IMG/VR virus record: IMGVR_UViG_3300045919_000097
Span: 1-64,000 of that record
From: a virus
Length of the DNA stretch: 64,000 nt
Reading direction: 5' to 3' (one strand)
In this document: positions 4,007 through 51,091 of the stretch, in pieces
How the letters are laid out: each line of letters starts with the position of its first letter
How positions within the stretch are numbered: position 1 is the first letter of the stretch
Notes under the pieces: generated by a model
Seen by the model: only the letters and a program-made list of their open reading frames with translations
The model's database searches: none
What the model was told of the DNA's origin: nothing
Position numbers and translations under genes: made by a program

Positions 4007-4804
4007 ATGCGCTCAGTTCAATCACAACGAGCGAAGGACAAACCTGTGGCCACTAAGACCCAGGTCAAGCAGCAGGCTGTAAAGCCAGCGGCAAAGGCCA
4101 AAGCACAAACAGTCATTGATGCACCACGCAAACCATCTGCGCGTGCTTCAATCAATTCAGCGTACAAAGCACGGCAAAGCAAGGGCATTGTCAGACCTGC
4201 CCCAGTCGTGGACATCTTGCCAGACGGTCGTAAGGTCAAAGTGCAGAGCAAAAGGGGCAATGCACCTGGCAGCCAAGACGTGATCATCCACAAGGACAGC
4301 TGGATGAGGCACGGGATCCAGTCGTTCACACCACTGACCTCGGTCACAGTCCCTGCGCTGCTAGGTGCTATCGCGGCCACTGGGAACCTCACACTAGCAT
4401 GCGAGCAGCTGAACATGAGCAGGCTGTCTGTGTACGCGTTCAAGGCTGAAAGCCCAGAGTTTGCCAAGGCATTGAACGAAGCGCAGCAGCTAGGTGTCGA
4501 AGCATGGAAGGACGCAGCAGCCAAGCGCGCATTCCAAGGCTGGGAGCGTCCCATCTACCAGCAAGGCTTGCAGGTTGGTGCTGACCGCCACTTCAGTGAC
4601 ACGCTTGCTCTTGCCTTCCTCAAGGCCGCAGACCCAGAGCACTTCCAAGACCGGAGCCGCATGGAACTAGGACCTGCGGGTGCAGATGGTGGCGGCTTGT
4701 TCTCAGGCAAGACTGAGGAAGACATCAACGAAGCCCTTACCAACAAGATGAAAGCACTGGCCATCGTTGTCGAGAGCAGCAAGAAGACCGGCACAGACGT
4801 ATGA
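4007..4804 (+). CDS. terS: Terminase small subunit
   Basis: 265 residues. The first 60 residues are Lys/Ala/Gln-rich and disordered. The central part (VPALLGAIAATGNLTLACEQLNMS, then VYAFKAESPEF) has the helix-turn-helix pattern of small terminase subunits that recognise the packaging site. The C-terminal part carries the typical DPEHFQDRSRMELGPAG segment of phage small terminases. It ends inside the start of the large terminase gene (GTATGA overlap), so the two are coupled. The start at 4007 has a poor ribosome-binding site, so a downstream start is possible. The role, ring-shaped DNA recognition for headful or cos packaging, is known for the family. Confidence 0.8.
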   Translation: MRSVQSQRAKDKPVATKTQVKQQAVKPAAKAKAQTVIDAPRKPSARASINSAYKARQSKGIVRPAPVVDILPDGRKVKVQSKRGNAPGSQDVIIHKDSWMRHGIQSFTPLTSVTVPALLGAIAATGNLTLACEQLNMSRLSVYAFKAESPEFAKALNEAQQLGVEAWKDAAAKRAFQGWERPIYQQGLQVGADRHFSDTLALAFLKAADPEHFQDRSRMELGPAGADGGGLFSGKTEEDINEALTNKMKALAIVVESSKKTGTDV

Positions 4805-6480
4805 AGATCCCCACCACGCTCGCAGCCACCAAGACCAAGCCGCAGTTCCACGTTCCCAAGTTCAGGGCTGTCACAGCAAGCCCCATGATGCGTGAAGACA
4901 AGCTGTCGTTGTACACGGTGGCTGACGAGATGGAGCGGAGGCTGTGTGAATCGTCGCTGCACGCGTTCTTGCAGTTCGCCTGGCCAATCATGGAGCCGGG
5001 TCGTATGTTCGTCGACAACTGGCACCTGCGTGCCATCTCAGAGCATCTCGAGGCCGTGAGCAGGCGGGAAATTACTCGGCTCCTCATCAACGTGCCGTTC
5101 CGTACGTCTAAGTCCACAATCACGTCGGTTGCCTGGCCAGCATGGACCTGGATCCACGACCCGAGCCATCAGTGGTTGTGTGGCAGCTATGCGTCTAAGC
5201 TCGCCATCCGTGACAACTTGAAGATGCGTCGCTTGGTCACAAGCTCTTGGTACCAGAAGCATTGGGGTAGCAAGGTGCGGCTGGCATCGGACCAGAACGA
5301 GAAGATCAGGTTCCAGAACGAATCGATGGGTTACCGCATTGCGTTCGGTATGACGGGCGGAGTCATGGGCGATGGTGGTGACACTGTGCTCATTGACGAC
5401 CCGCACGACCGCAACGGTGCGCACTCAGAGGCCGAGCGCGAGACTGCATTGACCACGTTCGACGAGGGCATCATCAGCCGGTTGAACGACCCCATTGACG
5501 GTGCCATCTGCATCATCATGCAGCGGCTGCACCAGAATGATCTGAGCGGCCACGTGCTGAAGCAAGGCGGCTGGGACCACCTCATGCTGCCCATGGAGTA
5601 CGAGCCGCAGCGTCGGTGCAAGACGTCGATCGGGTTCCAGGACCCAAGGAAAAAGGACGGAGAACTCTTGTGGACAGCACGGTTTGATGAATCAACTGTC
5701 GAGAAGCTGAAGCGGTCGCTAGGTTCGTACGGAGCAGCTGGGCAGTTAGCACAACGGCCTGCGCCTGACGGTGGCGGGATCCTTAACACAGAGTTCTTCG
5801 AGCTTTGGCCAAGGAACAAGGACCTGCCAGACCTGTTCTTTGTGCTGCAGTCGTACGACACAGCATTCACTGAGAAGCACCAGGTCAAAGGCGATCCTTC
5901 AGCAGGCACCATCTGGGGCATCGGCGAGCACGAGTTCGGTGAACGCAAGGGCAAGAAGTTTGCCATACTGCTCGATGCTTGGGCTGACCAGCTCAGCTAC
6001 CCGAACCTCAAGAAGAAGGTCATGGAGGATTGGCAGGCCACATACGGCGGGATCAAGGACGACCAGCTGCACCCAAGCCGTAGGCCAGACGCCATCCTCA
6101 TCGAGAAGAAAGCAAGTGGGCAGTCATTGATCCAAGACCTGAGAGCACGCAACCTGCCGGTCCAGGACTACGACCCAGGACGTGCTGACAAAGTGGCTCG
6201 TGCACACATGACAGCACCATTCCTTGAGGACTGCGTGTTCTACCTCATCGAATCAAAGAAGGACCCAGGCAAGCCAGTCACGTGGGCACGTCCATTGGTA
6301 GAACAATGTGAGCAGTTCCCGAATGGCGAGCACGACGACCTTGTGGACACGTTTACACAAGCCTGCATTTACTTCCGTGATTCTGGCTTCCTGGAGTTCG
6401 AAGTTATCCCTGATGACGAGGTTGAAGAAATCGACTACGCCACACAAAGAAAAGCGCGTCAGAACCCGTACAAGCGCTAG
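4801..6480 (+). CDS. terL: Terminase large subunit
   Basis: 559 residues; the ATP-driven DNA packaging motor and nuclease. The ATPase domain has a deviant Walker A (VPFRTSKST near residue 98-106) and Walker B TVLIDDPHD near 195. The nuclease domain shows the acidic metal ligands of the RNase H fold: QSYDTAFT near 350, LIEKKASGQ near 436 and HDDLVDT near 515. Length and motif order match phage large terminases. The start codon overlaps the stop of the small subunit. A candidate structured RNA and terminator follow the stop. In place of the usual GxGKS/T the loop reads FRTSKST, a form also found in other phage terminases. Confidence 0.95.
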   Translation: MKIPTTLAATKTKPQFHVPKFRAVTASPMMREDKLSLYTVADEMERRLCESSLHAFLQFAWPIMEPGRMFVDNWHLRAISEHLEAVSRREITRLLINVPFRTSKSTITSVAWPAWTWIHDPSHQWLCGSYASKLAIRDNLKMRRLVTSSWYQKHWGSKVRLASDQNEKIRFQNESMGYRIAFGMTGGVMGDGGDTVLIDDPHDRNGAHSEAERETALTTFDEGIISRLNDPIDGAICIIMQRLHQNDLSGHVLKQGGWDHLMLPMEYEPQRRCKTSIGFQDPRKKDGELLWTARFDESTVEKLKRSLGSYGAAGQLAQRPAPDGGGILNTEFFELWPRNKDLPDLFFVLQSYDTAFTEKHQVKGDPSAGTIWGIGEHEFGERKGKKFAILLDAWADQLSYPNLKKKVMEDWQATYGGIKDDQLHPSRRPDAILIEKKASGQSLIQDLRARNLPVQDYDPGRADKVARAHMTAPFLEDCVFYLIESKKDPGKPVTWARPLVEQCEQFPNGEHDDLVDTFTQACIYFRDSGFLEFEVIPDDEVEEIDYATQRKARQNPYKR

Positions 6481-34882: not shown

Positions 34883-35518
34883 GTGGCCTATGCCCTTACA
34901 TACTCACTGCTTGTAAGCTCTATTCAGAGTTACAATGAAAATTCTAGTGATAAATTTGCGGCGCAAATACCGCAGTTCATATCCAATGGCGAAAACCGTG
35001 TTGCAGCTGATATGAAGCAACAAGGATTCCAGAGCGTGGTGGCTGGAACTTTTGTTGCTGGTGTTAATGGTGCAGTTGTATCTAAACCTGCATTCTGGCG
35101 TGAAACCATCAGCTTTAACTACAAGGATCCTGTACTTGGGTGGCAACCAATCCGCATTCGCGCTCTTGAGTACCTCAAAAACTTCTGGCCGCTACAAGGT
35201 AGTACGTCACCACCGCGGTTCTATGCTGACTATAACTTTGAGAATTTTCTTGTGGCGCCGTCTCCTGACCAAGCATACGCATTTGAGCTTGCATACTATG
35301 CGCGGTTAGAACCTCTTGACGCTACAAATCAGACAAATTGGCTTACATTTAATGCGCCACAAGTGTTGCTGTATGCTTGCTTGCTTGAAGCTGCTCTTTG
35401 GCTTAAAAACTCAGAGTTGATAGCTTTGTTCCAAGGTCAGTACAATGATCAAAAGAGCAGTATCCTGCAGGAAAACGCAGAGCGTCTTGGTGATCGTAAT
35501 GAGGCGGTTGCTCGATGA
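34883..35518 (+). CDS. Head-tail adaptor protein (DUF6682, SU10-type)
   Basis: 211 residues starting at GTG 34883 directly after the spanin stop. The sequence follows the phage SU10/DUF6682 adaptor family: LTYSLLVSSIQSYNENSSDKFAAQIPQFISNGENRVAADM, RIRALEYLKNFWPLQG, then FLVAPSPDQAYAFELAYYARLEPL and APQVLLYACLLEAALWLKN. In SU10-like podoviruses this protein bridges portal and nozzle. It overlaps the nozzle gene by 4 nt, consistent with that pairing. Confidence 0.78.
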   Translation: MAYALTYSLLVSSIQSYNENSSDKFAAQIPQFISNGENRVAADMKQQGFQSVVAGTFVAGVNGAVVSKPAFWRETISFNYKDPVLGWQPIRIRALEYLKNFWPLQGSTSPPRFYADYNFENFLVAPSPDQAYAFELAYYARLEPLDATNQTNWLTFNAPQVLLYACLLEAALWLKNSELIALFQGQYNDQKSSILQENAERLGDRNEAVAR

Positions 35519-37503
35519 GCCAAGGCGGACAACCATCTCCATTGTTTACGCTGACATCACAAGCAGGTGTCAGGCGTGATGGTACTGACCTTGATTCTCC
35601 ATTTTATGCTGATGTTACATGGACAAGGTTTCAGCGCGGAAAGCCACGCAAGATAGGCGGTTACACTCAGCTCAGTGGTCAGTTAAATGCTCCCATTCGT
35701 TCTGTATATGTGGACGCGCGTAACGGGCAAATTACCTCTCACTATTTTGGCAAGTGGGGCATTCAGCGTCAACTGCTATCAGGTGTATCTGCAACAGGTC
35801 TTGTTGATCGCACTCCAGTAGGTTTTACACCAAGTGACTTTTTGACGTGGTCTCAAGGTGTCATGTACAGCTCAACAGGTGGGTCGTACTCAGCACTGAT
35901 TACTGCAGCAACCCCAGATCTTCTTGACGTCACTTCAGATGTTGGTGGTAGCGTGTATGCAGGAGATGTAGGATCTACTGATATTTTTGGTGTTATTAGT
36001 GATGGTAGTGGTCCTATTAGCATCAGTGGCGGAGTTTGTGTGCTGCAACCATTCTTGGTCGTGTATGGCAGCAATGGCCTTATCAGGAACACCAATGCCA
36101 ATGACTATTCTGCGGCCACAGGGTGGTCCACAGGAACCGGCTATGCAAATACAGCAAACGTTGCAGGTACCAAAATTATCCACGGGGCACCTGTTCGAGG
36201 AGGTAGTGCATCTCCTGCAGGCCTTTTCTGGGCTCTTGATGCAGTCATCCGCATGTCATTTGTTGGAGGCACTAAGATTTTCCAATATGACACTCTGAGC
36301 CAGCCAACATCGATACTTGGCAAGAAGACAGTTGTTGAAGTTGACGGCAGGTTTTTCTGGATAGGCACTGACCGCTTCCTTATGTACAGCGGTGTTGTGC
36401 AAGAACTGCCCAACCAGATGAACGTCAATGATTTCTTTGAAAACCTGAACTACGCGCATCGCAACAAAGTGTGGGGTACTAAGATCCCGCGTTACGGCGA
36501 AATCTGGTGGTTTTATCCGCGTGGCACTGATACAGAGTGCAAAAACGCCGTCATCTACAATTATGTTGAAAACACTTGGTACGACGCCAAAGCAACTCGT
36601 GGTGCTGGCCACTCAGTGCAGGTGTTTAACAAACCAGTGTGGGCTGGTGATGAGGATGCTCAAAGCACGATAGCACTTACAATTGGGACTACACTAGGTA
36701 CCAGCGCAGCTACAGCTGCAGGCATTGCCGTTTTGAATTTTGCAACTTCACCTGCAGCCGCCGGTGTAGCAGCCGGTCAAAAAGTAAGTGGGTCCACAGG
36801 ACTTCCAATTAATGCAACAGTGCTTTCAGTTGCGGCTCTTACCGTAACATTGACAGCAAACTGCATTGGTTCAGGTGTAGCCACTGGTGCTGCTTTGACT
36901 TTCACGTCAATGACTACTGGGTTTGTTTCTGGTCAAACGGCAACTGGTGGGGCATCAGGAGCCACTGGCATTGTTGTACGAGCAACGGCTATAGCATTGA
37001 ATCTGCAGAATGTGACTGGTACTTTTAATTCGGCAGAAACTGTGACTGGGCCAGCAGGAGCCACCTGCAAAACTATTGCTGCTAGCTACTCGCAGACATT
37101 GACAAGCGTGTATGTGCATGAAGTCAACTGGGACAAGATCCTAGGGCAAAACGCTTACGCCATTCCTGCAAGTTTCACAACATGCAATTTTGGATTGGCT
37201 GTAGGTTCACCATTTGGTGATGCACCACAAACACTCGATGTAAAAACACGTGTTCTTCGAATGGAACCAGACTTTGACCAGACTGGAGACATGATTGTTA
37301 CTGTAAATGGCAAAAGCTACGCTAACCAAGCTTACTCAGTTCAAGACCAACAAACTTTTGGTGTTAACACAAACTTTGTGGATTTGAGAGCACAAGAACG
37401 CATTGTCCAGATGCAGGTAAGCAGCAATACTCTCGGTGGGTTCTTTCAGCTTGGCCAAGTTCTTATGAAGCTCGCTCCTGGAGACGAGAGAGGTAATGGC
37501 TAA
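35515..37503 (+). CDS. Tail nozzle (beta-propeller) protein
   Basis: 662 residues. The first 380 residues have the propeller-type pattern of P22 gp10/SU10 nozzle proteins: RRDGTDLDSPFYADVTWTRFQRGKPRKIGGY, VYGSNGLIRNTNANDY, VEVDGRFFWIGTDRFLMYSG and WWFYPRGTDTECKNAVIYNYVENTWYD. About 150 residues of low-complexity Ala/Thr/Gly-rich beta sequence (about 385-530) are inserted before the propeller closes (VHEVNWDKILGQNAYAIP, then TRVLRMEPDFDQTGDM). The insertion is an unusual, probably surface-exposed domain. It is coupled to the adaptor gene upstream and the next gene downstream (overlapping stop/start). Confidence 0.78.
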   Translation: MSQGGQPSPLFTLTSQAGVRRDGTDLDSPFYADVTWTRFQRGKPRKIGGYTQLSGQLNAPIRSVYVDARNGQITSHYFGKWGIQRQLLSGVSATGLVDRTPVGFTPSDFLTWSQGVMYSSTGGSYSALITAATPDLLDVTSDVGGSVYAGDVGSTDIFGVISDGSGPISISGGVCVLQPFLVVYGSNGLIRNTNANDYSAATGWSTGTGYANTANVAGTKIIHGAPVRGGSASPAGLFWALDAVIRMSFVGGTKIFQYDTLSQPTSILGKKTVVEVDGRFFWIGTDRFLMYSGVVQELPNQMNVNDFFENLNYAHRNKVWGTKIPRYGEIWWFYPRGTDTECKNAVIYNYVENTWYDAKATRGAGHSVQVFNKPVWAGDEDAQSTIALTIGTTLGTSAATAAGIAVLNFATSPAAAGVAAGQKVSGSTGLPINATVLSVAALTVTLTANCIGSGVATGAALTFTSMTTGFVSGQTATGGASGATGIVVRATAIALNLQNVTGTFNSAETVTGPAGATCKTIAASYSQTLTSVYVHEVNWDKILGQNAYAIPASFTTCNFGLAVGSPFGDAPQTLDVKTRVLRMEPDFDQTGDMIVTVNGKSYANQAYSVQDQQTFGVNTNFVDLRAQERIVQMQVSSNTLGGFFQLGQVLMKLAPGDERGNG

Positions 37504-41349: not shown

Positions 41350-43785
41350 ATGGATCTCAAACTTGAAGACCTGTCGCCAGAAGACAGGAAGGCTCTTCCA
41401 CACAATCATCCTCTGCTTGATGAGTATGCTGAGCGCATGGCTGCCAAGTACGGTGTTGATCCTGCACTTGTGCTTGGCATCAAGAACGTTGGTGAACGCT
41501 CTGAGTCTAACTCAGTCAGTTCTAAGAAGGCTCGTGGCGTCATGCAGACAATACCAGCCACGGCCAAAGCACTTGGTATTGTGGACCAGACAGATCCTGT
41601 CCAGTCCATTGAGGGCGGCGTCAAGCTCATATCCCAGCACAGCAAGCAGCTAGGTACGAGTGACCCCGCCGTTTTGGCGGCAGCTTACCACGCTGGCCCA
41701 GGTTCCAAAGCCGTGAAGTCTGGGGATTTCAGTGGAATGCCTAAGACTGAGGCTTACTCTCAACGGGTTGCTGACTACGTCAAGGCAAACCCTAAGACTG
41801 TACCAGCCCAACCGGCAGCTGAGCCATCTGAGACACCCTCTGATAAGCCAGGGATGACTAAATTGCCTGCTGGGATTACTATAGACGACCTCAATCCAGA
41901 CGACAAGATTGCATACATGAAGTCCTTCTACAAGGCCAATCCTGGAACGAGTCCCACAAGTGGAAACAGCTTTGGTGAGAATGCACTTATAGGTGCGGGT
42001 AAGTTCTTTTCCGATACCGGCTCAGGTCTCCGCCAGGTTGCTGCAAACGTGGTAAATCCAGTGACCCATGCTTTTGGCGGCAAGGATCTGCTTCCACAAG
42101 ATTATGAAGGCGAAAAAGAACGGCGCGTCCAGGACGATGCACTCATGCGTACGTGGGGTGGCAACATGGGATACATGGGTGCTGCTGCAACGTCCTTGGC
42201 TCTACCGGGTGCTGGTGTTGCTAAGGGCGTGGGATCAGTTGTGAATCCAATTGCACGGTTGCTGACAAACCCAGTTGCTCGTGCAGCAGTTGCCAAGTAT
42301 GGAACCATTGCAGGTGCTGCTGGTGCATTGTCTACGCTGACACCAACCACAAGACCAGGTGAACGTACTGAGAACGCAGCTGTCGGTGCTGCACTTGGAC
42401 CTGTTGCAGACGTTGCACTTAGTGGCGGTGCAAACCTTGCTCGGCGCGGTATCAACTGGGTTGGAGACCACGTAAACCTTGGTCCTCTGCTTCGCCCTTC
42501 GTTCAATGCCCAGGCAACACCGGAAGCAAGGCAGGCAGTTGCTCGCGCAGCCATGAACGACGTGCCAGTATATCCACAGCAGTTGGACGCGCCAGGAACC
42601 CAGCTTTCAGCTGGCCAGACTGCAGACCAGACGTCACGGCTGACGCGTGCAATGAATGCAACCCATGGATCTGAGTCTGATAATATCCCAGGCGCGTTGA
42701 ACGATACCAGAGACCGTCTTAGTGACGTCTATCAGCAGATCTTTGGCAACCGTACCATCCCGCTGAACACACCATCTGGACCTGCACCGGCCAACGGCTT
42801 GCCGCCTCCTGGAGGCACTCAGTCTCCAAGCATGCTTGCACAACGGTTGATGCAGATCAGGGCACAATACCTGCAAGCTAAGCCTATGAGCACGCCAGAC
42901 CAAGGTCTGCTGCAGGACATTGACTCTGCTCTTGCCCATATCAACAACGGTGGTACCTTGTCGGGACGCCAGTATCAGAACTACCTACGTGACTACAATT
43001 CTTCAGCGGCACGTGCTGCTCGTAGCTCCATCCAGAACAATGTGATGACTGGGTCTGCTGACCATGAAGCATCTGCAGCTTATGGCCAAATGCGTGATGC
43101 CTTAATGGACCACGCATCTCAATATATTCCTCAGTGGCATCAAGACGCATTCAGAACAGCCAACCGCCAATGGCGCAATATGGCAACGCTCCAGAAGTTG
43201 GCACCTGCTGACATCAATGCGGACTTTAATCCTACGACTGTGGCTCGTGCACTTCAGCGTACTCCAGGAGGTACGTACGATGCAACAGATCCTACGCTCC
43301 AAGATCTTGCTCGGTTTGGCACGTCGTTCATGGGTCTTGATGCTAACCAAGGCAAAAAAGGCATTTTTGATATTTTGAAATCCGGGGCAAAGAAAGCAGC
43401 TCCATTCATTGCTACTGGTCTTGGCGAAGGTGCATTGATTGCATCGAGTACAACTCATGAAGATGACGAAAGCCCATGGGTCAAGGTACTTAAAGCTTCG
43501 CTCTTGCCAGCTGGTTACATGGCAGCAGCAGCAGCTGGCCGAGGATCCTTGAACAAGCCAGTCACCTTGAACCAACTCAATGAGCCACGTGGTGCCCTTG
43601 CCGATCTTTCGCGAATCCTTCAGCTGGCTCCTGCTGTTGAAGGTGCTACTGCTGCCCACAGCAAAATGAATGATGATGGTGAGGAACTGGATGATGATGG
43701 ATACGTTAAAGGCTACAATCCAAAGGATTCTGGAGCACCACGCATAGAGGTCCACGGCATCGGCAACAGAGGAGATGGACAATGA
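41350..43785 (+). CDS. Virion-associated lytic transglycosylase
   Basis: 811 residues. The N-terminal 150 residues contain a soluble lytic transglycosylase (SLT/goose-lysozyme-like) domain: AAKYGVDPALVLGIKNVGERS with the catalytic Glu near residue 49, ARGVMQTIPATAKALGI and AAAYHAGPGSKAV. The rest is long and Ala/Gly/Pro-rich with hydrophobic stretches (MGAAATSLALPGAG, and others) that could insert into membranes. The usual ESxFNP motif is altered to NVGERSESNSV. This enzyme would open the peptidoglycan locally when DNA is injected. It overlaps the next gene by 4 nt. Confidence 0.8.
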   Translation: MDLKLEDLSPEDRKALPHNHPLLDEYAERMAAKYGVDPALVLGIKNVGERSESNSVSSKKARGVMQTIPATAKALGIVDQTDPVQSIEGGVKLISQHSKQLGTSDPAVLAAAYHAGPGSKAVKSGDFSGMPKTEAYSQRVADYVKANPKTVPAQPAAEPSETPSDKPGMTKLPAGITIDDLNPDDKIAYMKSFYKANPGTSPTSGNSFGENALIGAGKFFSDTGSGLRQVAANVVNPVTHAFGGKDLLPQDYEGEKERRVQDDALMRTWGGNMGYMGAAATSLALPGAGVAKGVGSVVNPIARLLTNPVARAAVAKYGTIAGAAGALSTLTPTTRPGERTENAAVGAALGPVADVALSGGANLARRGINWVGDHVNLGPLLRPSFNAQATPEARQAVARAAMNDVPVYPQQLDAPGTQLSAGQTADQTSRLTRAMNATHGSESDNIPGALNDTRDRLSDVYQQIFGNRTIPLNTPSGPAPANGLPPPGGTQSPSMLAQRLMQIRAQYLQAKPMSTPDQGLLQDIDSALAHINNGGTLSGRQYQNYLRDYNSSAARAARSSIQNNVMTGSADHEASAAYGQMRDALMDHASQYIPQWHQDAFRTANRQWRNMATLQKLAPADINADFNPTTVARALQRTPGGTYDATDPTLQDLARFGTSFMGLDANQGKKGIFDILKSGAKKAAPFIATGLGEGALIASSTTHEDDESPWVKVLKASLLPAGYMAAAAAGRGSLNKPVTLNQLNEPRGALADLSRILQLAPAVEGATAAHSKMNDDGEELDDDGYVKGYNPKDSGAPRIEVHGIGNRGDGQ

Positions 43786-44921
43786 GTGGCATTGTAGATC
43801 TGTCGCGCCTTGCTCGTGAAGGCGGAGGTGCACTGGCCGAAGCCTACTCCAATCTGGGCCGCAAATGGACACCTGAATTGCAAGCCATCCAGAAGCGTGT
43901 TGGTGAGTTCTATCAAGGCCTTACCTCGGCCAACCCTGAGTACTTTGCAACGTCTAAGGAGATCCCCAAAGGCGCTGATCCAGAGATCATGCGGTTGCTA
44001 GCCAAGAAGCATGGGTTTGATCCTGATGAGTTCAAGTATGAACAAGGATCTGTGACGCATCGTCCCACCGGTACATCCATTGGGCCCACTGGTGACACTC
44101 CATTGCTTCTTGCAAAGCAAGCACAAGAAGCCCGTGATAAAGGACAAGAGTCCTTAGCTCGTAGCATCATTGACAAGCTCAGGTTTTCAAAAGTTGCCGG
44201 GATGGGACCATCTAGTGACTTTTTGAATGCAGACTTGATCGGTGCCGATTCAGGTACTGGCATGGCGCGGAAGCTTTATCCATTCTACTCAGATTGGCTG
44301 ATGGCCCATCCAGGAACCGGGCTTGAGCAACAAGGTATTACGGGGTCTAACCTTCAGAAGAAGGCCATGTATCAACTTCAGCCATTGGAAAAGTATGGTG
44401 AAGGATTCATGAACCGTAGCGAATTTTCCCCAGGCCAACTTGATTCCAATTGGGGTCAGCACAACAACGTCAGCCGGTTGACTGGTTCAGATCTGCCAAC
44501 TCAAGTTGGTGCACTGAACATGGCTATTGGCAACAACACAAATGCCAAGATCCACACTTTGCTGCAGTCTGCGCACGATGAGCTTGGTTCTCGGCTCTTA
44601 GACACTGGTGCTGATACGCCAGAGTTCAAGGCCCTGCTAGCTAAGCTAGACAGAGCCAAGAACGCTGGACTGACCACAACGTCATTTCCATCGAGCAACA
44701 ATAACTTCCAAGACCTGTCTAGTATCATCAGAGACATCTCAGGAGAGCTCAAGATTGACCAGCCAGTTGGCTACGACAGCCTACGCCGCATGGGCATAAC
44801 TAACGACGTCCTGAGGAACCCAGATATGGTTCCCCAGGATATTCCTAGTGAGCTAACAAAGGGTCTTGCTCGGGCGAGAGGTGGGCTGGTGACCCAGTCT
44901 CGTACACCTCGCGGGCAGTAG
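43782..44921 (+). CDS. Internal virion protein, last gene of the late block
   Basis: 379 residues, helical and charged, with no enzyme signature. Residues 50-110 include NPEYFATSKEIPKGADPEIMRLLAKKHGFDPDEF. The C-terminus ends GLARARGGLVTQSRTPRGQ, carrying the GGxV motif shared with other virion proteins here. It follows the transglycosylase with a 4-nt overlap and is the last rightward gene. Its final 77 bases overlap, on the opposite strand, the 3' end of the deacetylase gene; no terminator separates them. Confidence 0.6.
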   Translation: MSGIVDLSRLAREGGGALAEAYSNLGRKWTPELQAIQKRVGEFYQGLTSANPEYFATSKEIPKGADPEIMRLLAKKHGFDPDEFKYEQGSVTHRPTGTSIGPTGDTPLLLAKQAQEARDKGQESLARSIIDKLRFSKVAGMGPSSDFLNADLIGADSGTGMARKLYPFYSDWLMAHPGTGLEQQGITGSNLQKKAMYQLQPLEKYGEGFMNRSEFSPGQLDSNWGQHNNVSRLTGSDLPTQVGALNMAIGNNTNAKIHTLLQSAHDELGSRLLDTGADTPEFKALLAKLDRAKNAGLTTTSFPSSNNNFQDLSSIIRDISGELKIDQPVGYDSLRRMGITNDVLRNPDMVPQDIPSELTKGLARARGGLVTQSRTPRGQ

Positions 44922-45720
44922 ACACAGTCCCAAGATGGAGCAAAACTGTCTTGCTTCCGTTGTAACCACCGGCCAAGTTAAACACAAGAGGTGTATCATG
45001 AGACTTGCAATGCTCAAAGACCGTGTAGTCGCGCTCCTTCCAGTCAACGTCATTCAAGTATCCGGCACCGTACGGGTCATCTTTGTGAGAGTCCGCACCG
45101 GCTTGGTAAATCACAAGATCCCAAGCTTTCTTGCTCAGAGACTCTTTGAGCCGCTCTTGCGCACGTACAAAGTCGCCCGCCGTCGACGACCGGTCCAAAG
45201 AACATTGTTCTAGCCAGTCATTCCATCCATGGTGCTCAATCAGGTCTTGAGTGCCATCACCATAGTGGCCATCACCGTCAACAATCAAGACGTTGGCCAA
45301 TGGGTTCATTGATTTGACCGCAGATGCCGCAAGTGCCAAGCCGTTGAAAGTGCAGTATCCAGCTGAGTGTGCATAGTGAGCATGGTGGAAACCAGACAAA
45401 GGCGCAAAGACTGGTTGACGGGTTTGGGCAGCTACGACTGAGGCATGCGTCAAGATTGAACAAGACATCAGTGAGTGATCGTTGGCAACTGGGCTGAAAT
45501 CCCCGTAACCATTCATGATTTCTCCGCGCATAATGCCACGCACCAGTTCACGGTTATGGATGTTGCACAAAGCTTCAAGCGTTGAGATCTCGCCTTGGAC
45601 GTCTTGTGTAACGTCAAAGATCTTGTCAACGGCCAAGTTTGCCGCCAATTGGAAAACCTTAGAACCTTTTGACAGGTTGGTTGCGCCAGTGATAGCGCGT
45701 GGTGCTTTGTAAATGATCAT
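44845..45720 (-). CDS. HDAC-fold deacetylase/amidohydrolase
   Basis: 291 residues of the arginase/deacetylase superfamily (histone deacetylase, acetylpolyamine amidohydrolase, acetoin utilisation). The complete active site is visible: the His pair in SGFHHAHYAHSAGYC (H112-H113), zinc ligands D150 and H152 in VDGDGHYGDGTQ, D210 in YQAGADSHKDDP, and the transition-state Tyr253 in LAGGYNGS. The fold normally removes acetyl groups from lysine or polyamine amines. Its ATG overlaps the stop of the dCMP deaminase gene, so it is translated with the nucleotide/base-modification operon. A role in processing a modified base or a polyamine donor is inferred. Modification of host proteins is an alternative. 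Confidence 0.82.
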   Translation of the reverse strand: MIIYKAPRAITGATNLSKGSKVFQLAANLAVDKIFDVTQDVQGEISTLEALCNIHNRELVRGIMRGEIMNGYGDFSPVANDHSLMSCSILTHASVVAAQTRQPVFAPLSGFHHAHYAHSAGYCTFNGLALAASAVKSMNPLANVLIVDGDGHYGDGTQDLIEHHGWNDWLEQCSLDRSSTAGDFVRAQERLKESLSKKAWDLVIYQAGADSHKDDPYGAGYLNDVDWKERDYTVFEHCKSHDTPLVFNLAGGYNGSKTVLLHLGTVSTAREVYETGSPAHLSPEQDPLLAH

Positions 45721-46235
45721 AATTGTATTCCAGGAATGTTGATTGTATACCTAAGATCATGTTGATCCCAGGAACGACCGGATCCTTCCCAAAGCGTTCT
45801 GGCTTCTGAATGAGGATACTCCTCAAGGAAAACGATCCGTTGGCATGATGTATTCAGCAGCAGCTTTGTACAGGTCATGCATGGGCTTGCTGTTACGTAA
45901 GCCGTGTGAATTGAATAAACGTCACGGCACTGAAGCAATGCATTCTGTTCAGCATGGATTGCTTGGCATCCATCAAGATTAGTACCACTAGGTGCGTGCG
46001 CAGCTGGGCAAGCATGTTGATAAACCAATCGCCTTGTGTTCTGAGTTGGATGGTCTTCCATCCCAGTTGGTTCATTACAATGAGGTTGCCCAGCAGCAAC
46101 GCCGTTGTACCCAGTAGCAAGCACGTGGCCGCGCTCGTTAAGCAGGACTGCTCCTACATTACGGCGCAGACACGTGGCACGTTCAGCAGTGACCACGGCT
46201 AATGCCATGGCCCATGAGTCACGACTAGGACGCAC
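45717..46235 (-). CDS. Deoxycytidylate deaminase
   Basis: 172 residues from GTG at 46235, chosen because the product then begins MRPSRDSWAMALAVVTAERATCLRRNVGAVL, the usual start of phage dCMP deaminases, and GGTGG precedes it. Zinc-site motifs HAEQNALLQ (His plus catalytic Glu) and SPCMTC (two Cys) are intact. It converts dCMP to dUMP, feeding thymidylate synthesis and lowering dCMP. It overlaps the hydroxymethylase gene upstream by 11 nt and the deacetylase gene downstream by 4 nt. T4 carries the same enzyme beside its hydroxymethylation pathway. Confidence 0.88.
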   Translation of the reverse strand: MRPSRDSWAMALAVVTAERATCLRRNVGAVLLNERGHVLATGYNGVAAGQPHCNEPTGMEDHPTQNTRRLVYQHACPAAHAPSGTNLDGCQAIHAEQNALLQCRDVYSIHTAYVTASPCMTCTKLLLNTSCQRIVFLEEYPHSEARTLWEGSGRSWDQHDLRYTINIPGIQL

Positions 46236-47019
46236 GTTCCCACCACCGTTCTTTATCGCCGGGCGATGTTTCACGAAGCACACGGAGGCACTCCATCAGA
46301 ACATCTTCGCTCTTGAACATGACAACCGGTGGCTCAACGCTCTGTGGGAAGTACATGGCCTTGCCATACTTCTCAACAATGGCCGTAGCTTCATCCCATT
46401 GCTCTTGATAGAGATGAGACGATGCTGCGGTCACATACAACATCCCAGGATGCAACAACGTGCCATACTGTTCGCGGATCCGAGCGCAGATCTTGTATCC
46501 AAGCATTGTGAAGTTAAACACGTCATATGGAAGACCCAGCCATGCGTCAGACGACCTCATGAATACGTGAATATTCAGTTCATTGCCTTTGCGGATGGAT
46601 GCAGTGATTGCCACGGTACAAGGTACATCCTTGGTTGCCGGCGGGTTCTCTTTCCAGATTGTCATGCAAGCTTGGCGTGTATTGACATCGTCAACTAGCT
46701 TCCTGCAAACATAGTCAATCTGGGATTCAATGCGAGGACCGTAGGCACCAAAGAACGACTCACCGTTATCGCTGAAATCAGCAATGCGCTTGTTCCAAGG
46801 TGCAATATCATCCACCTTGTTACTGCCACTGAGGATCCAGTAGGCTTCAGCGGCCATGAACCGGTAACTGAGCTTGCGTTCAGGTATGGTAAGCACTGGC
46901 CACTTCATGTTGACTACCACCCTGTGATGAGGCAGCTCCAGCGTCTGCTTTCCGCGCGGACTTACCTTGTCACCAACAGCCATGATAGCAGCCAGTGTTT
47001 TGATCCATTCAAAGTTCAT
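46225..47019 (-). CDS. Thymidylate-synthase-fold pyrimidine hydroxymethylase, probably dCMP-specific
   Basis: 264 residues of the thymidylate synthase/pyrimidine hydroxymethylase family. FFGAYGPR (91-96), RQACMTIW (115-122), the catalytic Cys134 in DVPCTVAI and FMRSSDAWLGLPYDVFNF are all visible. Two features point away from thymidylate synthase: Cys is followed by Thr as in T4 gp42 (synthases have PCH), and the residue that reads the base is Asp166 (GLPYD) instead of the synthase Asn. In T4 dCMP hydroxymethylase that Asp selects cytosine. The predicted product is 5-hydroxymethyl-dCMP from dCMP and methylene-tetrahydrofolate. A divergent synthase remains possible. Confidence 0.75.
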   Translation of the reverse strand: MNFEWIKTLAAIMAVGDKVSPRGKQTLELPHHRVVVNMKWPVLTIPERKLSYRFMAAEAYWILSGSNKVDDIAPWNKRIADFSDNGESFFGAYGPRIESQIDYVCRKLVDDVNTRQACMTIWKENPPATKDVPCTVAITASIRKGNELNIHVFMRSSDAWLGLPYDVFNFTMLGYKICARIREQYGTLLHPGMLYVTAASSHLYQEQWDEATAIVEKYGKAMYFPQSVEPPVVMFKSEDVLMECLRVLRETSPGDKERWWERAS

Positions 47020-47435
47020 TCGTCTTCATCCTTGATACGTGGATCCGCCAGGAAAAAACCGGCGTAGTTGATGATGTCAAGAGCAGTATCGTTCAATCCT
47101 TCAAAGTTAGAGGCTGAACCATCCATTTCTTTGCGGGTAAGTGATACGAAGCGCTCAGTCTTAGTATGCAGCATCTGTGCATAGCTAATGGTCCCAAAAG
47201 GGAAATAACCAGTGCGGTCAATCGTGTGCGGATCGCTTTGCCCATGGTTGTAGTCCTCACTCTTCTTGATGCAGAGCAGAGCAGCTGTGGCCAAAGCACC
47301 GGGATGACCTCCGCGGCGCTGGAGTTCCAGCAGTAGCAACTTAGTGCCGTAGCCTTTGAGGTCGTCAATGGCATACTGAAATGTCTCACCGATATGAGAC
47401 ACGCCTTCCGGCAATGGTGGTGTCATTCCAGCCAT
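47016..47435 (-). CDS. Nmad1/DUF1599 nucleotide-modification-associated protein
   Basis: 139 residues. KKSEDYNHG, GTISYAQMLHTKTERFVSLTRKE and GLNDTALDIINYAGFFLA match the DUF1599 domain, renamed nucleotide modification associated domain 1 (Nmad1) because of its recurring presence in phage base-hypermodification operons. The domain is helical and its reaction is not known. It overlaps the hydroxymethylase gene by 4 nt and shares a TAATG junction with the MazG-type gene. Together they form one coupled nucleotide-metabolism unit. Confidence 0.78.
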   Translation of the reverse strand: MAGMTPPLPEGVSHIGETFQYAIDDLKGYGTKLLLLELQRRGGHPGALATAALLCIKKSEDYNHGQSDPHTIDRTGYFPFGTISYAQMLHTKTERFVSLTRKEMDGSASNFEGLNDTALDIINYAGFFLADPRIKDEDE

Positions 47436-47923
47436 TACTTTGCCGCCCCATTTTGATCATACTTACCGTAGGCATTCAGCAGAGGCTGATTGTAGAAGGC
47501 GTTGAACTCTGCCCTGTCCAAAATCGCTTCAGTCTGAGGTGGGACCCAGCCAGGAGGCTTGCACACATCAATGTCAATGCCACGGGCAGTCTTGCCAATG
47601 ACTTTGGCCATGTTGGCACGTTGGACGTCCTGCCACAGATCTTCCCAAGGAAGACCCATCTCAATGGCAGTTCCCTTGGCAACGTAGACAAGGTCAATCA
47701 GTGCATCGGCCATGAGAGCCAAGTTGTTGTTGCCCTGAGCTTCCTTGAATTCATCCAGCTCTTCCTGCATGAACCGTATGCGTTCATGGACTCGCTGAGA
47801 CGTCACCAACCGCTGAGTCGGATGATTAGAGATTGGCTGCTTGAACTTCTCGTAAAAAGCGCGGACATCTTCCATCTCGTCATAGAAGAACATCCGCTTA
47901 ATGAAGGTAAGTAGTTTTCTCAT
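47435..47923 (-). CDS. MazG-type nucleoside triphosphate pyrophosphohydrolase
   Basis: 162 residues from ATG at 47923 (the overlap with the methyltransferase stop sets the start). It carries the all-alpha NTP pyrophosphatase pattern: FMQEELDEFKEA (EExxE helix), ADALIDLVYVAKGTAIEMGL (ExxD/DxxY helix), then WQDVQRANMAKV and CKPPGWVPPQ. Enzymes of this fold hydrolyse dNTPs to dNMPs. T4 gp56 dCTPase belongs to the same superfamily and supplies dCMP for hydroxymethylation while removing dCTP. By context this gene is a candidate dCTPase/dUTPase; specificity cannot be read from the sequence. Confidence 0.78.
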   Translation of the reverse strand: MRKLLTFIKRMFFYDEMEDVRAFYEKFKQPISNHPTQRLVTSQRVHERIRFMQEELDEFKEAQGNNNLALMADALIDLVYVAKGTAIEMGLPWEDLWQDVQRANMAKVIGKTARGIDIDVCKPPGWVPPQTEAILDRAEFNAFYNQPLLNAYGKYDQNGAAK

Positions 47924-48678
47924 TTGCGGCAGACCCAAAGGTTGTTCCGGGCATCATCTGGGTAGAGTGGTGCAAAGAGGCAAGAGATTGCATCATTGTC
48001 GTAATATTGTTCCAGCGCCTTACGGACCTCAACAATAGCAGCTTTGGAGGCTCTGTCCGTCTCCGCCTTCCCGATATGCTTGATGTCCATGAAGGTGCCG
48101 TAACGTTTTTCGACTGTGAACCCAGCCTTCTCAGTAGCTTTCTGGAGTTCGGGGACAGTGTACTCGTGAATATGGTTCGCTGCATGGCGCACTCCATCGT
48201 AGCAAGGTGTTGACATCAGCATGATGCCGCCAGGTTTGAGAGCTGCAAAGCAAGCTTTGAGCATCTTTGCTCCGTGCTCTACCTTCATGTGCTCAATGAC
48301 CTCGAAGTGAACCACAATGTCAAAGCCACCAGCGTTTTCACCTTTGAGGAGCTCTTTGTAGCGCTCAACAAAGTTGAATTCACCGAGGAAGTTCAAGCGT
48401 CCAGCATTCGATGGCTTGAGCTTGTTCAGATCAACGCCAGTGTAATGCAAGACATGGGGAGCAGCACCTCCGGTCAGGATTTTGCTCAACGGTTTGTCCT
48501 CACCGCATCCGATTTCAAGGACGCGGTCTTTGACAGTGATGAACCGTCGAGCATAGCTCCAGCGCCAGAAGTGCGCAGAGTAATCACGACCCAGCGTTTT
48601 CCCATGCCCATTGGCGTGGAGCTGAGTCGTGTCGTAGTCGCGATCGTCGCGATTCTTTTCTTTACGGGTGGTAGCCAT
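47920..48678 (-). CDS. Class I SAM-dependent methyltransferase
   Basis: 252 residues. SAM-binding motif I RVLEIGCGEDKPLSK lies near residue 52, the acidic TGVDLNKLKP near 80, and FDIVVHFEVIEHMKVEHGAKML with FAALKPGGIMLMSTPCYDG (motifs IV-VI) follow. The build is that of Methyltransf_11/UbiG-like small-molecule methylases, not of classical DNA methyltransferases (no target-recognition domain, no DPPY). It is the first gene of the coupled modification operon, with a GCTGAGGA leader 14-21 bases before its ATG. A nucleotide or base precursor is a possible substrate, which is inference. Confidence 0.75.
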   Translation of the reverse strand: MATTRKEKNRDDRDYDTTQLHANGHGKTLGRDYSAHFWRWSYARRFITVKDRVLEIGCGEDKPLSKILTGGAAPHVLHYTGVDLNKLKPSNAGRLNFLGEFNFVERYKELLKGENAGGFDIVVHFEVIEHMKVEHGAKMLKACFAALKPGGIMLMSTPCYDGVRHAANHIHEYTVPELQKATEKAGFTVEKRYGTFMDIKHIGKAETDRASKAAIVEVRKALEQYYDNDAISCLFAPLYPDDARNNLWVCRK

Positions 48679-48715
48679 TATTGGTGGGTCCTCAGCAGAG
48701 TTTTTCCACGCAGGC

Positions 48716-49324
48716 TTACTTGGCGTCGGGCGGATTCATGCCCTTCTTGGTCAGATCCTTACGGTACCAAGCAACGTAGCTGCGCTTGTTGTCGTCCAGG
48801 CCAAACTTGGCTTGTACTTTCTCGAAGATCTTGTTGTCGGTCAGCTTGTCATCCATGATCAATTGCTTGAACAGGGCAGCAGCAGTCTCGGCTGGGACCT
48901 TCTTCTCAGGTGCGCCGTCAGCAGATGCTTTTGCAGCAGTCTTTTTGGCGGCGGGTTTTGCTGCAGCAGACTTTGCGGCAGGCTTTTCCGTTTTAGCAGC
49001 GGACGCTTTTTTGGCAGTTGCCATTTGGATTTCCTTAGGGGTCAGTTTAACAAGGCGGCCGAGTTCTTCCAAGGCCTCCGCGGATGCCCCGACAGACATT
49101 GCATACTGTGCATAAAGCGCAGCGCAGCGTTCCGGCGGGTAATCAGTAAGCTGTTGGTACAACTCACTGAATGCTTTACTGGGCATTGATTCAACATTGA
49201 AGCCGTTCTCAATGCTCAGCGGAATGAATTCTACAGTGCTTCCACCGCGTAGTGCTAAGCACGTGCGGCGCTGCAGATCTGCACAAACGGCAGGAAATTT
49301 GGTGACTGGAGACAGTTTTGACAT
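48716..49324 (-). CDS. DNA-binding-like early protein with H1-type Lys/Ala linker
   Basis: 202 residues. An N-terminal 100-residue domain (ALRGGSTVEFIPLSIENGF, PPERCAALYAQYAMSVGASAEALEELGRLV) is joined by an H1-like Ala/Lys/Pro-rich linker of about 45 residues to a C-terminal helical domain (FKQLIMDDKLTDNKIFEKVQAKFGLDDNKRSYVAWYRKDLTKKG). The C-terminal pattern is repeated in other phage nucleoid-like proteins. An internal ATG at 49023 with AAGGAAAT upstream could give a second, shorter product. An extended -10 promoter and a GCTGAGGA leader precede the start at 49324. A DNA-binding role is inferred from composition. Confidence 0.68.
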   Translation of the reverse strand: MSKLSPVTKFPAVCADLQRRTCLALRGGSTVEFIPLSIENGFNVESMPSKAFSELYQQLTDYPPERCAALYAQYAMSVGASAEALEELGRLVKLTPKEIQMATAKKASAAKTEKPAAKSAAAKPAAKKTAAKASADGAPEKKVPAETAAALFKQLIMDDKLTDNKIFEKVQAKFGLDDNKRSYVAWYRKDLTKKGMNPPDAK

Positions 49325-49352
49325 TTGGTTCCTCAGCGTTGATGATGATCAT

Positions 49353-49361
49353 ATTGTATCA
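49353..49361 (-). promoter_or_regulatory. Extended -10 promoter candidate
   Basis: Minus-strand TGATACAAT (49361-49353) is an extended -10 element as in P3 and P5. No TTTACA lies 17 bp upstream, so this would be a -35-independent or weaker promoter. It precedes the H1-linker protein gene with a leader of about 20 bases containing CGCTGAGGA. Confidence 0.4.
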
Positions 49362-49365
49362 TGAT

Positions 49366-50847
49366 TTATGACCGCTTGCGCATCTTAGCATATTTTTGCA
49401 GTCCACTGAACAACGTCTTCTGGTCCTTGTCTTTCACGTGGAGCATATTCCATACGTACAAATCAATTGTGTTATCAGCAACAAAGACGTGGACAAAGAC
49501 CCGTTTGTTTTTGTTGCCTTGGCGGCGGACCCGGCGGATGAACTGGTCGTACACCTCTCCGTCCCATGTCAACGTGAACCACGCCACGTTGTTGCCGGCA
49601 TCTTGCAGATTCAGTCCGTGGCTCATGCCTTGCGGCTGTGCAAACAGTACATCAATTTCACCGTCATTCCATTTCTTTTCAAGATCTCTGAACTTGCTGG
49701 CTGGGTAGTCACTGGAAAAGACGGCTTTTGGGAATGCTTTGCGCAGACGCTCTTCCTCATGGGTAAACTCATAAGCCACAAGCAGCGGTTGGCCTTGCAG
49801 CTCATCGATGAGGTCTCCAAGTGCCACAATCTTTTCGTCATGCAGCTCCATCCACTCCCTGGACTTTTTTGGAGGCTGGAGCAGGTTAGTAACCTCAGGC
49901 GTCAAGAAGACCGCACCAGAGGCCATCTGACGGCACTTGCCCATGGCAACACCGGCATTCTTTGCTACCACCTTGCCTTCGTCTAGCTCAGCGATCAACT
50001 TGTCTTCAAGCTTAAGGTAGTTCAGCAAAGCTTTTTCAGGAAGCTCCACACGGATGACGTTCTCTATGAGAGCAGGCATCTCAATGTAGTCTTCGGCAGC
50101 CATCCGCAAAACCAGTGGATTCAGCTTTTCAAAGATGAGTTCATCTGACCCAGGTTTCAAATCCCAGCCAAATCCATTCCATGATGGCGTGAAGTACGTC
50201 TTGTAGAAGTGGGTGATGTACTGTCCAAAGCTCCGGCCTTGGTCCAGCATGTAGGTCTGAGCAAACAAGTGGATGTAACCGTTAGCTGCTGGAGATCCCG
50301 TCAGGCCCCACCGCCTGTGGAACAGTCCAATGACCTGCTTCATTGCTTTGAACCGGTCAGATCCATGGTTTTTGAATGCGGTCAGCTCATCAATGACAAG
50401 TGTCCCAAAGCCAAGCGCCTTGACCCGCTTCATATCAACTGAGACGGCATTCTTTCCAGTCCGTGGCGACTTGACCTTGGTGACGCCAAACAACCATTCA
50501 AGGCCGGCTGGGTTGATGACGTAGATGTCAGCCTTCTCTTTCAGCAGAGCATCCTTGTTGGGTCCATGCAAGACCACAATCTTGAAGTCCTTAAAATCAA
50601 GCCACTTCTCTGCTTCTCCAGGCCACGTAGCATGAGCAACGCGCAGTGGAGCAATGATTAGTGTCTTATCTTCTTTTCCGGCCTTGTACAGTAGCTTCAA
50701 GGCTGCTAGTGTTATTGATGTCTTTCCCAGACCCGGATCTAAGAACAATGCTCCGGCTCCGTGTTCCAGCAGGAATTTGACTGCTTTCTTTTGATAGTCG
50801 TGCGGCTTCCACGGACTTGGCAAGCGTTTGAAGAGCTCTATCTGCAT
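49366..50847 (-). CDS. SNF2-type DEAD/H helicase
   Basis: 493 residues from ATG at 50847. Superfamily 2 motifs are in order: WKPHDYQKKAVKFLL (Q motif), Walker A DPGLGKTSI, APLRVAHATWPGEAEKW (Ia), VIDELTAFKNHGSDRF (Walker B DE plus SNF2-like extension), WGLTGSPAANG (III), AQPQGMSHGLNLQDAG (V) and YDQFIRRVRRQGN (VI). It lacks a chromodomain or other targeting module and resembles helicases of many podoviruses. It is likely a fork-remodelling, recombination or replication helicase. Its first 182 bases overlap the VRR-NUC gene in another frame. A TTG nine codons upstream could also start it. Confidence 0.88.
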   Translation of the reverse strand: MQIELFKRLPSPWKPHDYQKKAVKFLLEHGAGALFLDPGLGKTSITLAALKLLYKAGKEDKTLIIAPLRVAHATWPGEAEKWLDFKDFKIVVLHGPNKDALLKEKADIYVINPAGLEWLFGVTKVKSPRTGKNAVSVDMKRVKALGFGTLVIDELTAFKNHGSDRFKAMKQVIGLFHRRWGLTGSPAANGYIHLFAQTYMLDQGRSFGQYITHFYKTYFTPSWNGFGWDLKPGSDELIFEKLNPLVLRMAAEDYIEMPALIENVIRVELPEKALLNYLKLEDKLIAELDEGKVVAKNAGVAMGKCRQMASGAVFLTPEVTNLLQPPKKSREWMELHDEKIVALGDLIDELQGQPLLVAYEFTHEEERLRKAFPKAVFSSDYPASKFRDLEKKWNDGEIDVLFAQPQGMSHGLNLQDAGNNVAWFTLTWDGEVYDQFIRRVRRQGNKNKRVFVHVFVADNTIDLYVWNMLHVKDKDQKTLFSGLQKYAKMRKRS

Positions 50848-51091
50848 TTGTGTGTGTCTCCACTTGATACCCAAGGACTTTCAATTCGCGGTGTATTTCG
50901 GCTTGCTTGGGTTCCGGTACATAGCCTTCGCGCTTGAACTCAAACAATATTGGGCGACCACCTGGAAACCAGATGATGCGGTCTGGATACCCTGTGTCGC
51001 CCAATATACTGAGCTTGCTTACCTTAAGGCCGTAGCGGTTCCAAGCTTCGCGAACGAACTTGTTTTCCTCATCGACCTCTTTGTCTCTCAT
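50666..51091 (-). CDS. VRR-NUC domain nuclease
   Basis: 141 residues. GDTGYPDRIIWFPGGRPILFEFKREG contains the PD...ExK nuclease signature of VRR-NUC (PF08774), followed by KQAEIHRELKVLGYQVETHTNADRALQTL, which completes the domain by about residue 93. The last 46 residues are a basic Ser/Arg-rich tail. Standalone VRR-NUC proteins act as Holliday-junction or structure-specific nucleases. The start overlaps the stop of the DEDD exonuclease gene (ATGA), and the last 182 bases overlap the helicase gene in another frame. Confidence 0.82.
   Translation of the reverse strand: MRDKEVDEENKFVREAWNRYGLKVSKLSILGDTGYPDRIIWFPGGRPILFEFKREGYVPEPKQAEIHRELKVLGYQVETHTNADRALQTLAKSVEAARLSKESSQIPAGTRSRSIVLRSGSGKDINNTSSLEATVQGRKRR

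What the first reader, a model, noticed from the sequence alone, without database searches (positions are those of the whole stretch)
44845..45720. HDAC-fold deacetylase translationally coupled to a base-modification operon
The sequence shows a complete arginase/deacetylase active site (H112, H113, D150, H152, D210, Y253), and its ATG overlaps the stop of dCMP deaminase. That gene overlaps a TS-fold hydroxymethylase, which overlaps Nmad1, MazG-type and methyltransferase genes. Members of this superfamily remove acetyl groups from lysine or polyamine amines. Some phages attach polyamines or amino groups to 5-hydroxymethyl pyrimidines, so a deacetylation step on an acylated base or donor would be a new role. 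Deacetylation of host proteins, such as nucleoid proteins, is the competing idea.
Basis: partly seen in the sequence, partly recalled or inferred. Interest (0 to 1): 0.85.

Follow-up and report, generated by a model that had tools for sequence, protein, structure and literature searches.

The report
HDAC11-like deacylase in DNA-modifying phages
This phage carries an intact enzyme of the histone-deacetylase family next to genes that alter its DNA bases, but relatives show that the enzyme stays while the base chemistry is swapped between C, T and A, so it is probably a helper for living with an altered genome rather than a step in making the altered base.

Summary
In detail: 44845-45720 (-) encodes an intact HDAC-fold zinc hydrolase whose ATG overlaps the dCMP deaminase stop, as the last gene of a cytosine-modification operon. 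The closest solved structures are fatty-acid-binding deacylases (Vibrio cholerae HdaH, Leptospira HDAC11), not acetylpolyamine amidohydrolases.

The proposed role in making a modified base is not supported. (1) The same C cassette occurs in 47 other phage records without any HDAC, including cultured phage AXL3, whose DNA resists 35 of 37 enzymes, all with G/C in their sites. (2) Relatives sharing the window phage's virion genes keep the HDAC at the same site while the cassette upstream changes: cytosine (window, three relatives), thymine hypermodification with hmdU DNA kinase (four records), or adenine to 2-aminoadenine with PurZ/DpoZ (many records). (3) Three relatives with that virion arm but no cassette (Caulobacter phage RW, MW202545, CRP-901) have no HDAC.

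So the HDAC is a lineage-fixed accessory of phages with altered genomes, kept through changes of base chemistry. The likeliest role is deacylation of host (or virion) protein lysines; this is inferred. A base-deacetylation role survives only for the thymine relatives that carry a GNAT acetyltransferase.

The parts
44845..45720 (-). HDAC-fold (class IV / HDAC11-like) zinc amidohydrolase, last gene of the early operon
   Evidence: Pfam PF00850 7e-26; AF2 pLDDT 91.3; Foldseek best 9gky VcHdaH and 9gz5 Leptospira HDAC11; catalytic residues 50/50
45717..46235 (-). dCMP deaminase (ORF open from 46283; probable GTG start at 46235)
   Evidence: PF00383 6.9e-20, phrog_174 1.2e-34; start inferred from homologues and sequence
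46225..47019 (-). thymidylate-synthase-fold dCMP 5-hydroxymethylase or methylase
   Evidence: PF00303 3.4e-19; best PDB MilA CMP 5-hydroxymethylase; Asp in LGLPYD, as in nearly all cassette homologues and in AXL3
47016..47435 (-). small conserved protein, weak Nmad1/DUF1599 similarity
   Evidence: PF07659 E=0.06, under cut-off; phrog_18404 3e-15; homologues in L007-L009 and L095, none with a Pfam hit among those tested
47435..47938 (-). MazG/PRA-PH-type nucleotide pyrophosphohydrolase
   Evidence: PF01503 1.1e-16
47920..48678 (-). SAM-dependent methyltransferase, conserved member of the C cassette
   Evidence: PF13489 1.1e-15; in AXL3, MW202621 and others
48716..49324 (-). conserved protein between helicase and cassette, in C- and T-type relatives
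   Evidence: homologues in G041, G004, G069, AXL3
49366..50874 (-). SNF2-type helicase, shared early-arm gene
   Evidence: PF00176 7.4e-19, phrog_62 5.5e-131
43782..44921 (+). WS379/S395-family gene, convergent with HDAC (77-nt 3' overlap); flanks HDAC in the modified-genome relatives and is absent in the unmodified ones
4801..6480 (+). terminase large subunit, used to define the virion lineage
   Evidence: phrog_38 1.2e-81; 52-53% identity to G041/G004, 38-45% over the nuclease half in Z relatives
35515..37503 (+). virion structural protein, used to define the virion lineage
   Evidence: phrog_3287 3.1e-33; found in RW, MW202545, CRP-901, G041, G004, G052, G059

Best explanation
The gene encodes an active zinc-dependent deacylase of the HDAC11/VcHdaH type that is fixed in a clade of tailed phages whose genomes carry an altered base. 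It is co-transcribed as the last gene of the early arm, after whichever base-modification cassette the phage holds, and is not a step in making that base. Its likeliest work is removal of acyl groups from lysines of host (or virion) proteins during infection, a need common to phages with C-, T- or A-altered DNA. Shown here: fold, complete active site, purifying selection, position, and retention through changes of cassette. Inferred: catalytic activity, acyl-lysine as substrate, co-transcription and timing, and the link to altered DNA.
For: Retention across chemistries: C cassette in the window and L007-L009; T hypermodification cassettes (HMUDK_hel, dUMP-type TS, ADDT/GNAT/DAO or TAGT/APH/NTP-transferase) in L010, L298-L300; PurZ/DpoZ in L322 and many others, NCBIfam PurZ 333 bits >300 and DpoZ 803 >500. 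Shared virion arm: 15-24 of 34 window genes recur in G041, G004, G052, G059. Holding the modified-genome HDACs as one clade raises lnL by 14, AU p=0.75. C cassette without HDAC: 47 of 49 records. HDAC beside S395 in 64 of 64 loci with room. Closest structures: VcHdaH and Leptospira HDAC11; VcHdaH is a lysine de-decanoylase, and bacterial polyamine deacetylases are confined to cluster 4 (PMC11532494).
Against: No substrate has been tested. Class IV likeness rests on nearest match at about 20% identity, not on formal clustering. The retention pattern shows lineage inheritance with perhaps one gain, so it does not prove a shared function. Distant phage HDACs sit in many unrelated contexts. Three T-cassette records do carry a GNAT acetyltransferase, which keeps a base-linked role possible there.
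Confidence: 0.55

Rival explanations
1. One reading: the enzyme removes an acyl group from a hydroxymethylpyrimidine-derived base, its nucleotide, or an amine donor, as a step of base hypermodification.
For: Operon position conserved in the close relatives. In L298, L299 and L300 the cassette has ADDT, GNAT and an FAD oxidoreductase, the kind of set known from memory to build acetylated aminomethyl-dU, so an acetylated base could exist there.
Against: The same C cassette lacks HDAC in 47 of 49 records, including AXL3, whose DNA resists the tested enzymes with G/C in the site (PMC7504290). The HDAC is kept beside PurZ/DpoZ, where no acyl group is known. No GNAT relative was found in the window. 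The phages collection holds 95 HMUDK_hel and 204 PurZ-like records but only 7 HDAC records.
Confidence: 0.1
2. Polyamine deacetylase: frees spermidine or putrescine from N-acetyl forms to help pack or neutralise altered DNA.
For: Giant-virus APAHs with this activity are proven (PMC9992855). It would serve any base chemistry.
Against: Cluster 5 enzymes are the nearest by sequence and fold; APAHs rank lower. Bacterial polyamine deacetylases are confined to cluster 4 (PMC11532494). The residue after Asp-Pro in the DPxG motif is Tyr or Leu, not the Glu recalled for the HDAC10 gatekeeper. The viral APAHs found in that study were all from Imitervirales.
Confidence: 0.15
3. Counter-defence tied to altered genomes: the enzyme undoes an acylation that the host uses to activate or mark a response to phages with modified DNA.
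For: Within one virion lineage, records with a cassette have HDAC and the three without a cassette lack it. Two other phage clades pair HDAC with a DSP/PTP-type phosphatase gene, which suggests removal of protein modifications.
Against: The in-lineage correlation may be a single evolutionary event. No acylation-based defence matching it is known to me. PADLOC has no hit.
Confidence: 0.15
4. Neutral passenger: a lineage gene whose position next to the cassette is only synteny, acting on an unrelated host metabolite.
For: Many distant phage HDACs lie among tail, RNA-ligase or NAD genes.
Against: Kept through several cassette swaps with all catalytic residues and dN/dS 0.05-0.20.
Confidence: 0.15

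Closest known systems
Vibrio cholerae HdaH (cluster 5b; PDB 9gky/9gkv)
   Same: Best sequence-profile match (5.8e-39) and best fold match (TM 0.76); complete HDAC active site; similar size
   Different: About 20% identity; bacterial; not linked to nucleotide genes in the sources used; activity of the phage protein unknown
HDAC11 / Leptospira class IV HDAC (PDB 9gz5)
   Same: Second-best fold match; similar size
   Different: 20% identity; phage gene is in a DNA-modification operon
Rhodococcus phage E3 gp202 'putative histone deacetylase'
   Same: Phage HDAC-fold protein, CTFNGLALAA motif, 34.5% identity over 148 aa
   Different: Next to a tail-fibre gene, not a base-modification cassette; separate branch of the tree
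Imitervirales acetylpolyamine amidohydrolases (PMC9992855)
   Same: Viral members of the same superfamily with proven amide hydrolysis
   Different: Giant viruses; polyamine deacetylases; not the nearest by sequence or fold
Stenotrophomonas phage AXL3 C cassette (gp27-gp31)
   Same: Same MTase-MazG-TS(Asp)-dCMP deaminase order; genome refractory to enzymes with G/C in their sites
   Different: Has a P-loop kinase in place of the small Nmad1-like gene; no HDAC in the whole record
Z-genome phages (PurZ, DpoZ, DatZ)
   Same: The environmental Z phages found here carry the HDAC right after the operon
   Different: Cultured phages with PurZ are not among the HDAC-bearing records found by tblastn

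Membership tests
Classical Zn-dependent deacylase (HDAC family, PF00850) | Score above the curated cut-off | tested here: met
   91.7 bits against 27.9
Classical Zn-dependent deacylase (HDAC family, PF00850) | Zn ligands Asp-His-Asp, His-His dyad and catalytic Tyr | tested here: met
   D150, H152, D210, H112, H113, Y253 in 50 of 50 rows
Classical Zn-dependent deacylase (HDAC family, PF00850) | Arginase/deacetylase fold | tested here: met
   pLDDT 91.3; Foldseek E 4e-14 to 9gky
Classical Zn-dependent deacylase (HDAC family, PF00850) | Hydrolysis of acyl amides | not testable with these tools
   Needs enzyme assay
Class IV / cluster 5 (HDAC11, VcHdaH) | Closer to cluster 5 than to other clusters | tested here: inconclusive
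   Nearest by profile and fold, but formal clustering as in PMC11532494 was not run
Class IV / cluster 5 (HDAC11, VcHdaH) | Preference for long acyl chains | not testable with these tools
   Needs acyl-chain assay
Acetylpolyamine amidohydrolase (cluster 4) | Nearest relatives are APAHs | tested here: not met
   APAH 3q9b and 9gkz rank below VcHdaH
Base-hypermodification enzyme | Present wherever the cassette is present | tested here: not met
   2 of 49 C-cassette records have HDAC
Base-hypermodification enzyme | Tied to one base chemistry | tested here: not met
   Same clade with C, T and A cassettes
dCMP 5-hydroxymethylase (46225-47019) | Asp in place of the thymidylate synthase substrate Asn | tested here: met
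   LGLPYDVFNF; aligned with SDVFSF of MilA
dCMP 5-hydroxymethylase (46225-47019) | Product is 5-hydroxymethyl, not 5-methyl | not testable with these tools
   Xp12 has 5mC throughout (PMC7653180); sequence alone does not decide

The most novel reading that the evidence does not exclude
One phage lineage exchanges whole base-modification cassettes, switching which base is altered (C, T or A), at a fixed site next to an HDAC11-like deacylase that is always kept; the deacylase meets a need created by altered DNA itself, whatever the chemistry, for example by deacylating host DNA-binding or sensor proteins.
Probability: 0.3. Interest if true: 0.8.

Novelty: new variant of a known kind. Interest (0 to 1): 0.62.

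Why it matters
Modified phage DNA has been studied mainly through the enzymes that make the base. A deacylase that outlives swaps of the base chemistry points to a further function that altered genomes may need inside the host. The lineage also offers a natural series: one virion arm with C, T, A or no modification, which makes it testable what follows from the base and what follows from the phage. It also suggests that the cytosine modification implied by AXL3's restriction resistance comes from the TS(Asp)-MTase-MazG-deaminase cassette.

Tried and rejected
Single-sequence scan of viral contigs with the window HDAC found nothing, because its patterns were too strict. The first profile scan missed the T-cassette relative G041 because a pattern required Ala or Val after CTFNGL; a tighter profile recovered it. 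HDAC as an obligate member of the C cassette: rejected. HDAC fixed with the virion arm alone: held until RW, MW202545 and CRP-901 were found to share that arm without HDAC. Two origins for the modified-genome HDACs, as drawn in the quick tree: not upheld by the AU test. Scan with the 811-aa virion protein found no relatives and the WS379 alignment was too divergent to scan. Defence-family search was negative for the HDAC. The searches of the paper library made here found no report of this gene pairing; the key papers on base-modification domains and thymidine hypermodification are not held, so statements on those pathways are from memory plus Pfam names.

Full report
What is there. The window is 64,000 of 64,899 bases of an IMG/VR virus record. 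The minus-strand ORF 44845-45720 is an HDAC-family protein with a complete active site, conserved in 50 of 50 aligned homologues. The predicted fold is confident (pLDDT 91.3) and matches HDAC structures, best of all Vibrio cholerae HdaH with bound decanoic acid and Leptospira HDAC11 with bound dodecenoic acid. The viral structure library holds only giant-virus relatives. HDAC homologue pairs show dN/dS 0.05-0.20.

The operon. Upstream lie dCMP deaminase, a thymidylate-synthase-fold enzyme, a small protein weakly like Nmad1, a MazG-type pyrophosphohydrolase and a methyltransferase. The TS-fold enzyme carries Asp in LGLPYD and is closest among solved structures to MilA, a CMP 5-hydroxymethylase. 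The Asp is seen in nearly all cassette homologues and in phage AXL3. AXL3 has the same cassette, and its DNA was cut by only 2 of 37 enzymes, both with A/T-only sites (PMC7504290). The cassette therefore most likely alters cytosine; whether the product is 5hmC-derived or 5mC is open.

Close relatives. L007, L008 and L009 keep the whole gene order from the exonuclease to the HDAC. L010, L298, L299 and L300 have the HDAC at the same end of the early arm but a T-hypermodification cassette: 5-hmdU DNA kinase helical domain (PF18723) and a TS gene, with amino acid:DNA transferase, GNAT acetyltransferase, FAD oxidoreductase and HMUDK kinase in L298-L300, or a TET-associated glycosyltransferase, NTP transferase and APH-like kinase in L010. 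In L010 and G041 the TS has Asn where the C cassette has Asp.

A third chemistry. A large set of environmental records has the HDAC directly after DpoZ, PurZ, a dATP/dGTP pyrophosphohydrolase-like gene, an HD gene and an NrdR-like gene. NCBIfam scores the example L322 as PurZ (333 bits, cut-off 300) and DpoZ (803, cut-off 500). These phages should carry 2-aminoadenine in place of adenine.

One lineage. Profile comparison shows that the window, G041, G004 and the Z records G052 and G059 share most of the virion arm: terminase, the 1008-aa and 662-aa proteins and a dozen more. The gene that flanks the HDAC on its other side (WS379/S395) is one family across these groups, linked through L298. A scan for S395, not for HDAC, found HDAC next to it in 64 of 64 loci with room, and PurZ in 45, including the 41 loci with more than 4 kb upstream. 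A likelihood test accepts all these HDACs (with L018 and L023) as one clade (AU p=0.75, lnL 14 higher than the free quick tree).

Two controls. (a) C cassette outside the lineage: 47 of 49 records have no HDAC family match anywhere in the record. In the 50,697-record phage collection PurZ-like genes are found in 204 records, HMUDK_hel in 95 and this HDAC in 7. So none of the three chemistries needs the HDAC. (b) Virion lineage without a cassette: Caulobacter phage RW, MW202545 and Roseobacter phage CRP-901 share 14, 16 and 8 of the 34 virion-arm genes, have no TS, PurZ or HMUDK match in the stretches searched (PurZ and HDAC were searched in the whole records), and have no HDAC or WS379/S395. 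Within the lineage the HDAC therefore goes with having some cassette, but this may be one evolutionary event, and the RW, MW202545 and CRP-901 early arms differ in other genes too.

Reading. The HDAC is not a biosynthetic step for one base. It is an accessory that a modified-genome lineage keeps while exchanging the chemistry. The nearest characterised enzymes are lysine deacylases; bacterial polyamine deacetylases belong to another cluster (PMC11532494), and the viral APAHs in the survey read here come from giant viruses (PMC9992855). Deacylation of host or virion protein lysines is the most economical proposal. In two unrelated phage clades an HDAC gene overlaps or abuts a DSP/PTP-type phosphatase gene, which fits removal of protein modifications in phages more generally. 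Substrate, timing and benefit are inferred.

Limits. The records are mostly metagenomic, some partial. Phylogenetic placement rests on a quick tree. Pathway assignments for the T cassettes use Pfam names and general knowledge, because the primary papers were not held.

Noticed in passing
L294 (G041), L298, L299, L010, L322 and others against window 44845-50874: Whole base-modification cassettes for C, T and A appear to be exchanged at one site between the early arm and the HDAC in phages that share a virion arm.
   Followed up: yes
L049, L050, L058, L061, L063-L066, L071, L073, L074, L076, L078, L079, L082-L085: In two other phage clades the HDAC gene overlaps or abuts an upstream DSP/PTP-type phosphatase gene (PF00782; L063-type and L049-type).
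   Followed up: partly
L136 (Stenotrophomonas phage AXL3, gp27-gp31): The TS(Asp)-MTase-MazG-kinase-deaminase cassette offers a likely cause of the reported resistance of AXL3 DNA to enzymes with G/C in their sites.
   Followed up: partly
L087:9046-10008 and equivalents: Most C-cassette phages have, in place of the small Nmad1-like gene, a ~320-aa protein with a thymidylate-kinase-like P-loop half and a conserved C-terminal half without a Pfam match; the window clade lacks it there.
   Followed up: no
L007, L008, L009 at about 9989-10003; window 45718-45735: A TATAAT sequence lies just upstream of the HDAC ATG in the three close relatives (TACAAT in the window), hinting at a second, possibly leaderless, promoter for HDAC.
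   Followed up: no
LR756501 (W07) 345356-346513: A 735-kb huge phage with an HDAC homologue also encodes a full-length adenylosuccinate-synthetase family protein; PurA or PurZ not resolved.
   Followed up: no
window 43782-44921 and L322:10743-11930: The WS379/S395 family flanks HDAC in the modified-genome relatives but changes strand: convergent in C/T phages, co-directional in Z phages; function unknown.
   Followed up: partly
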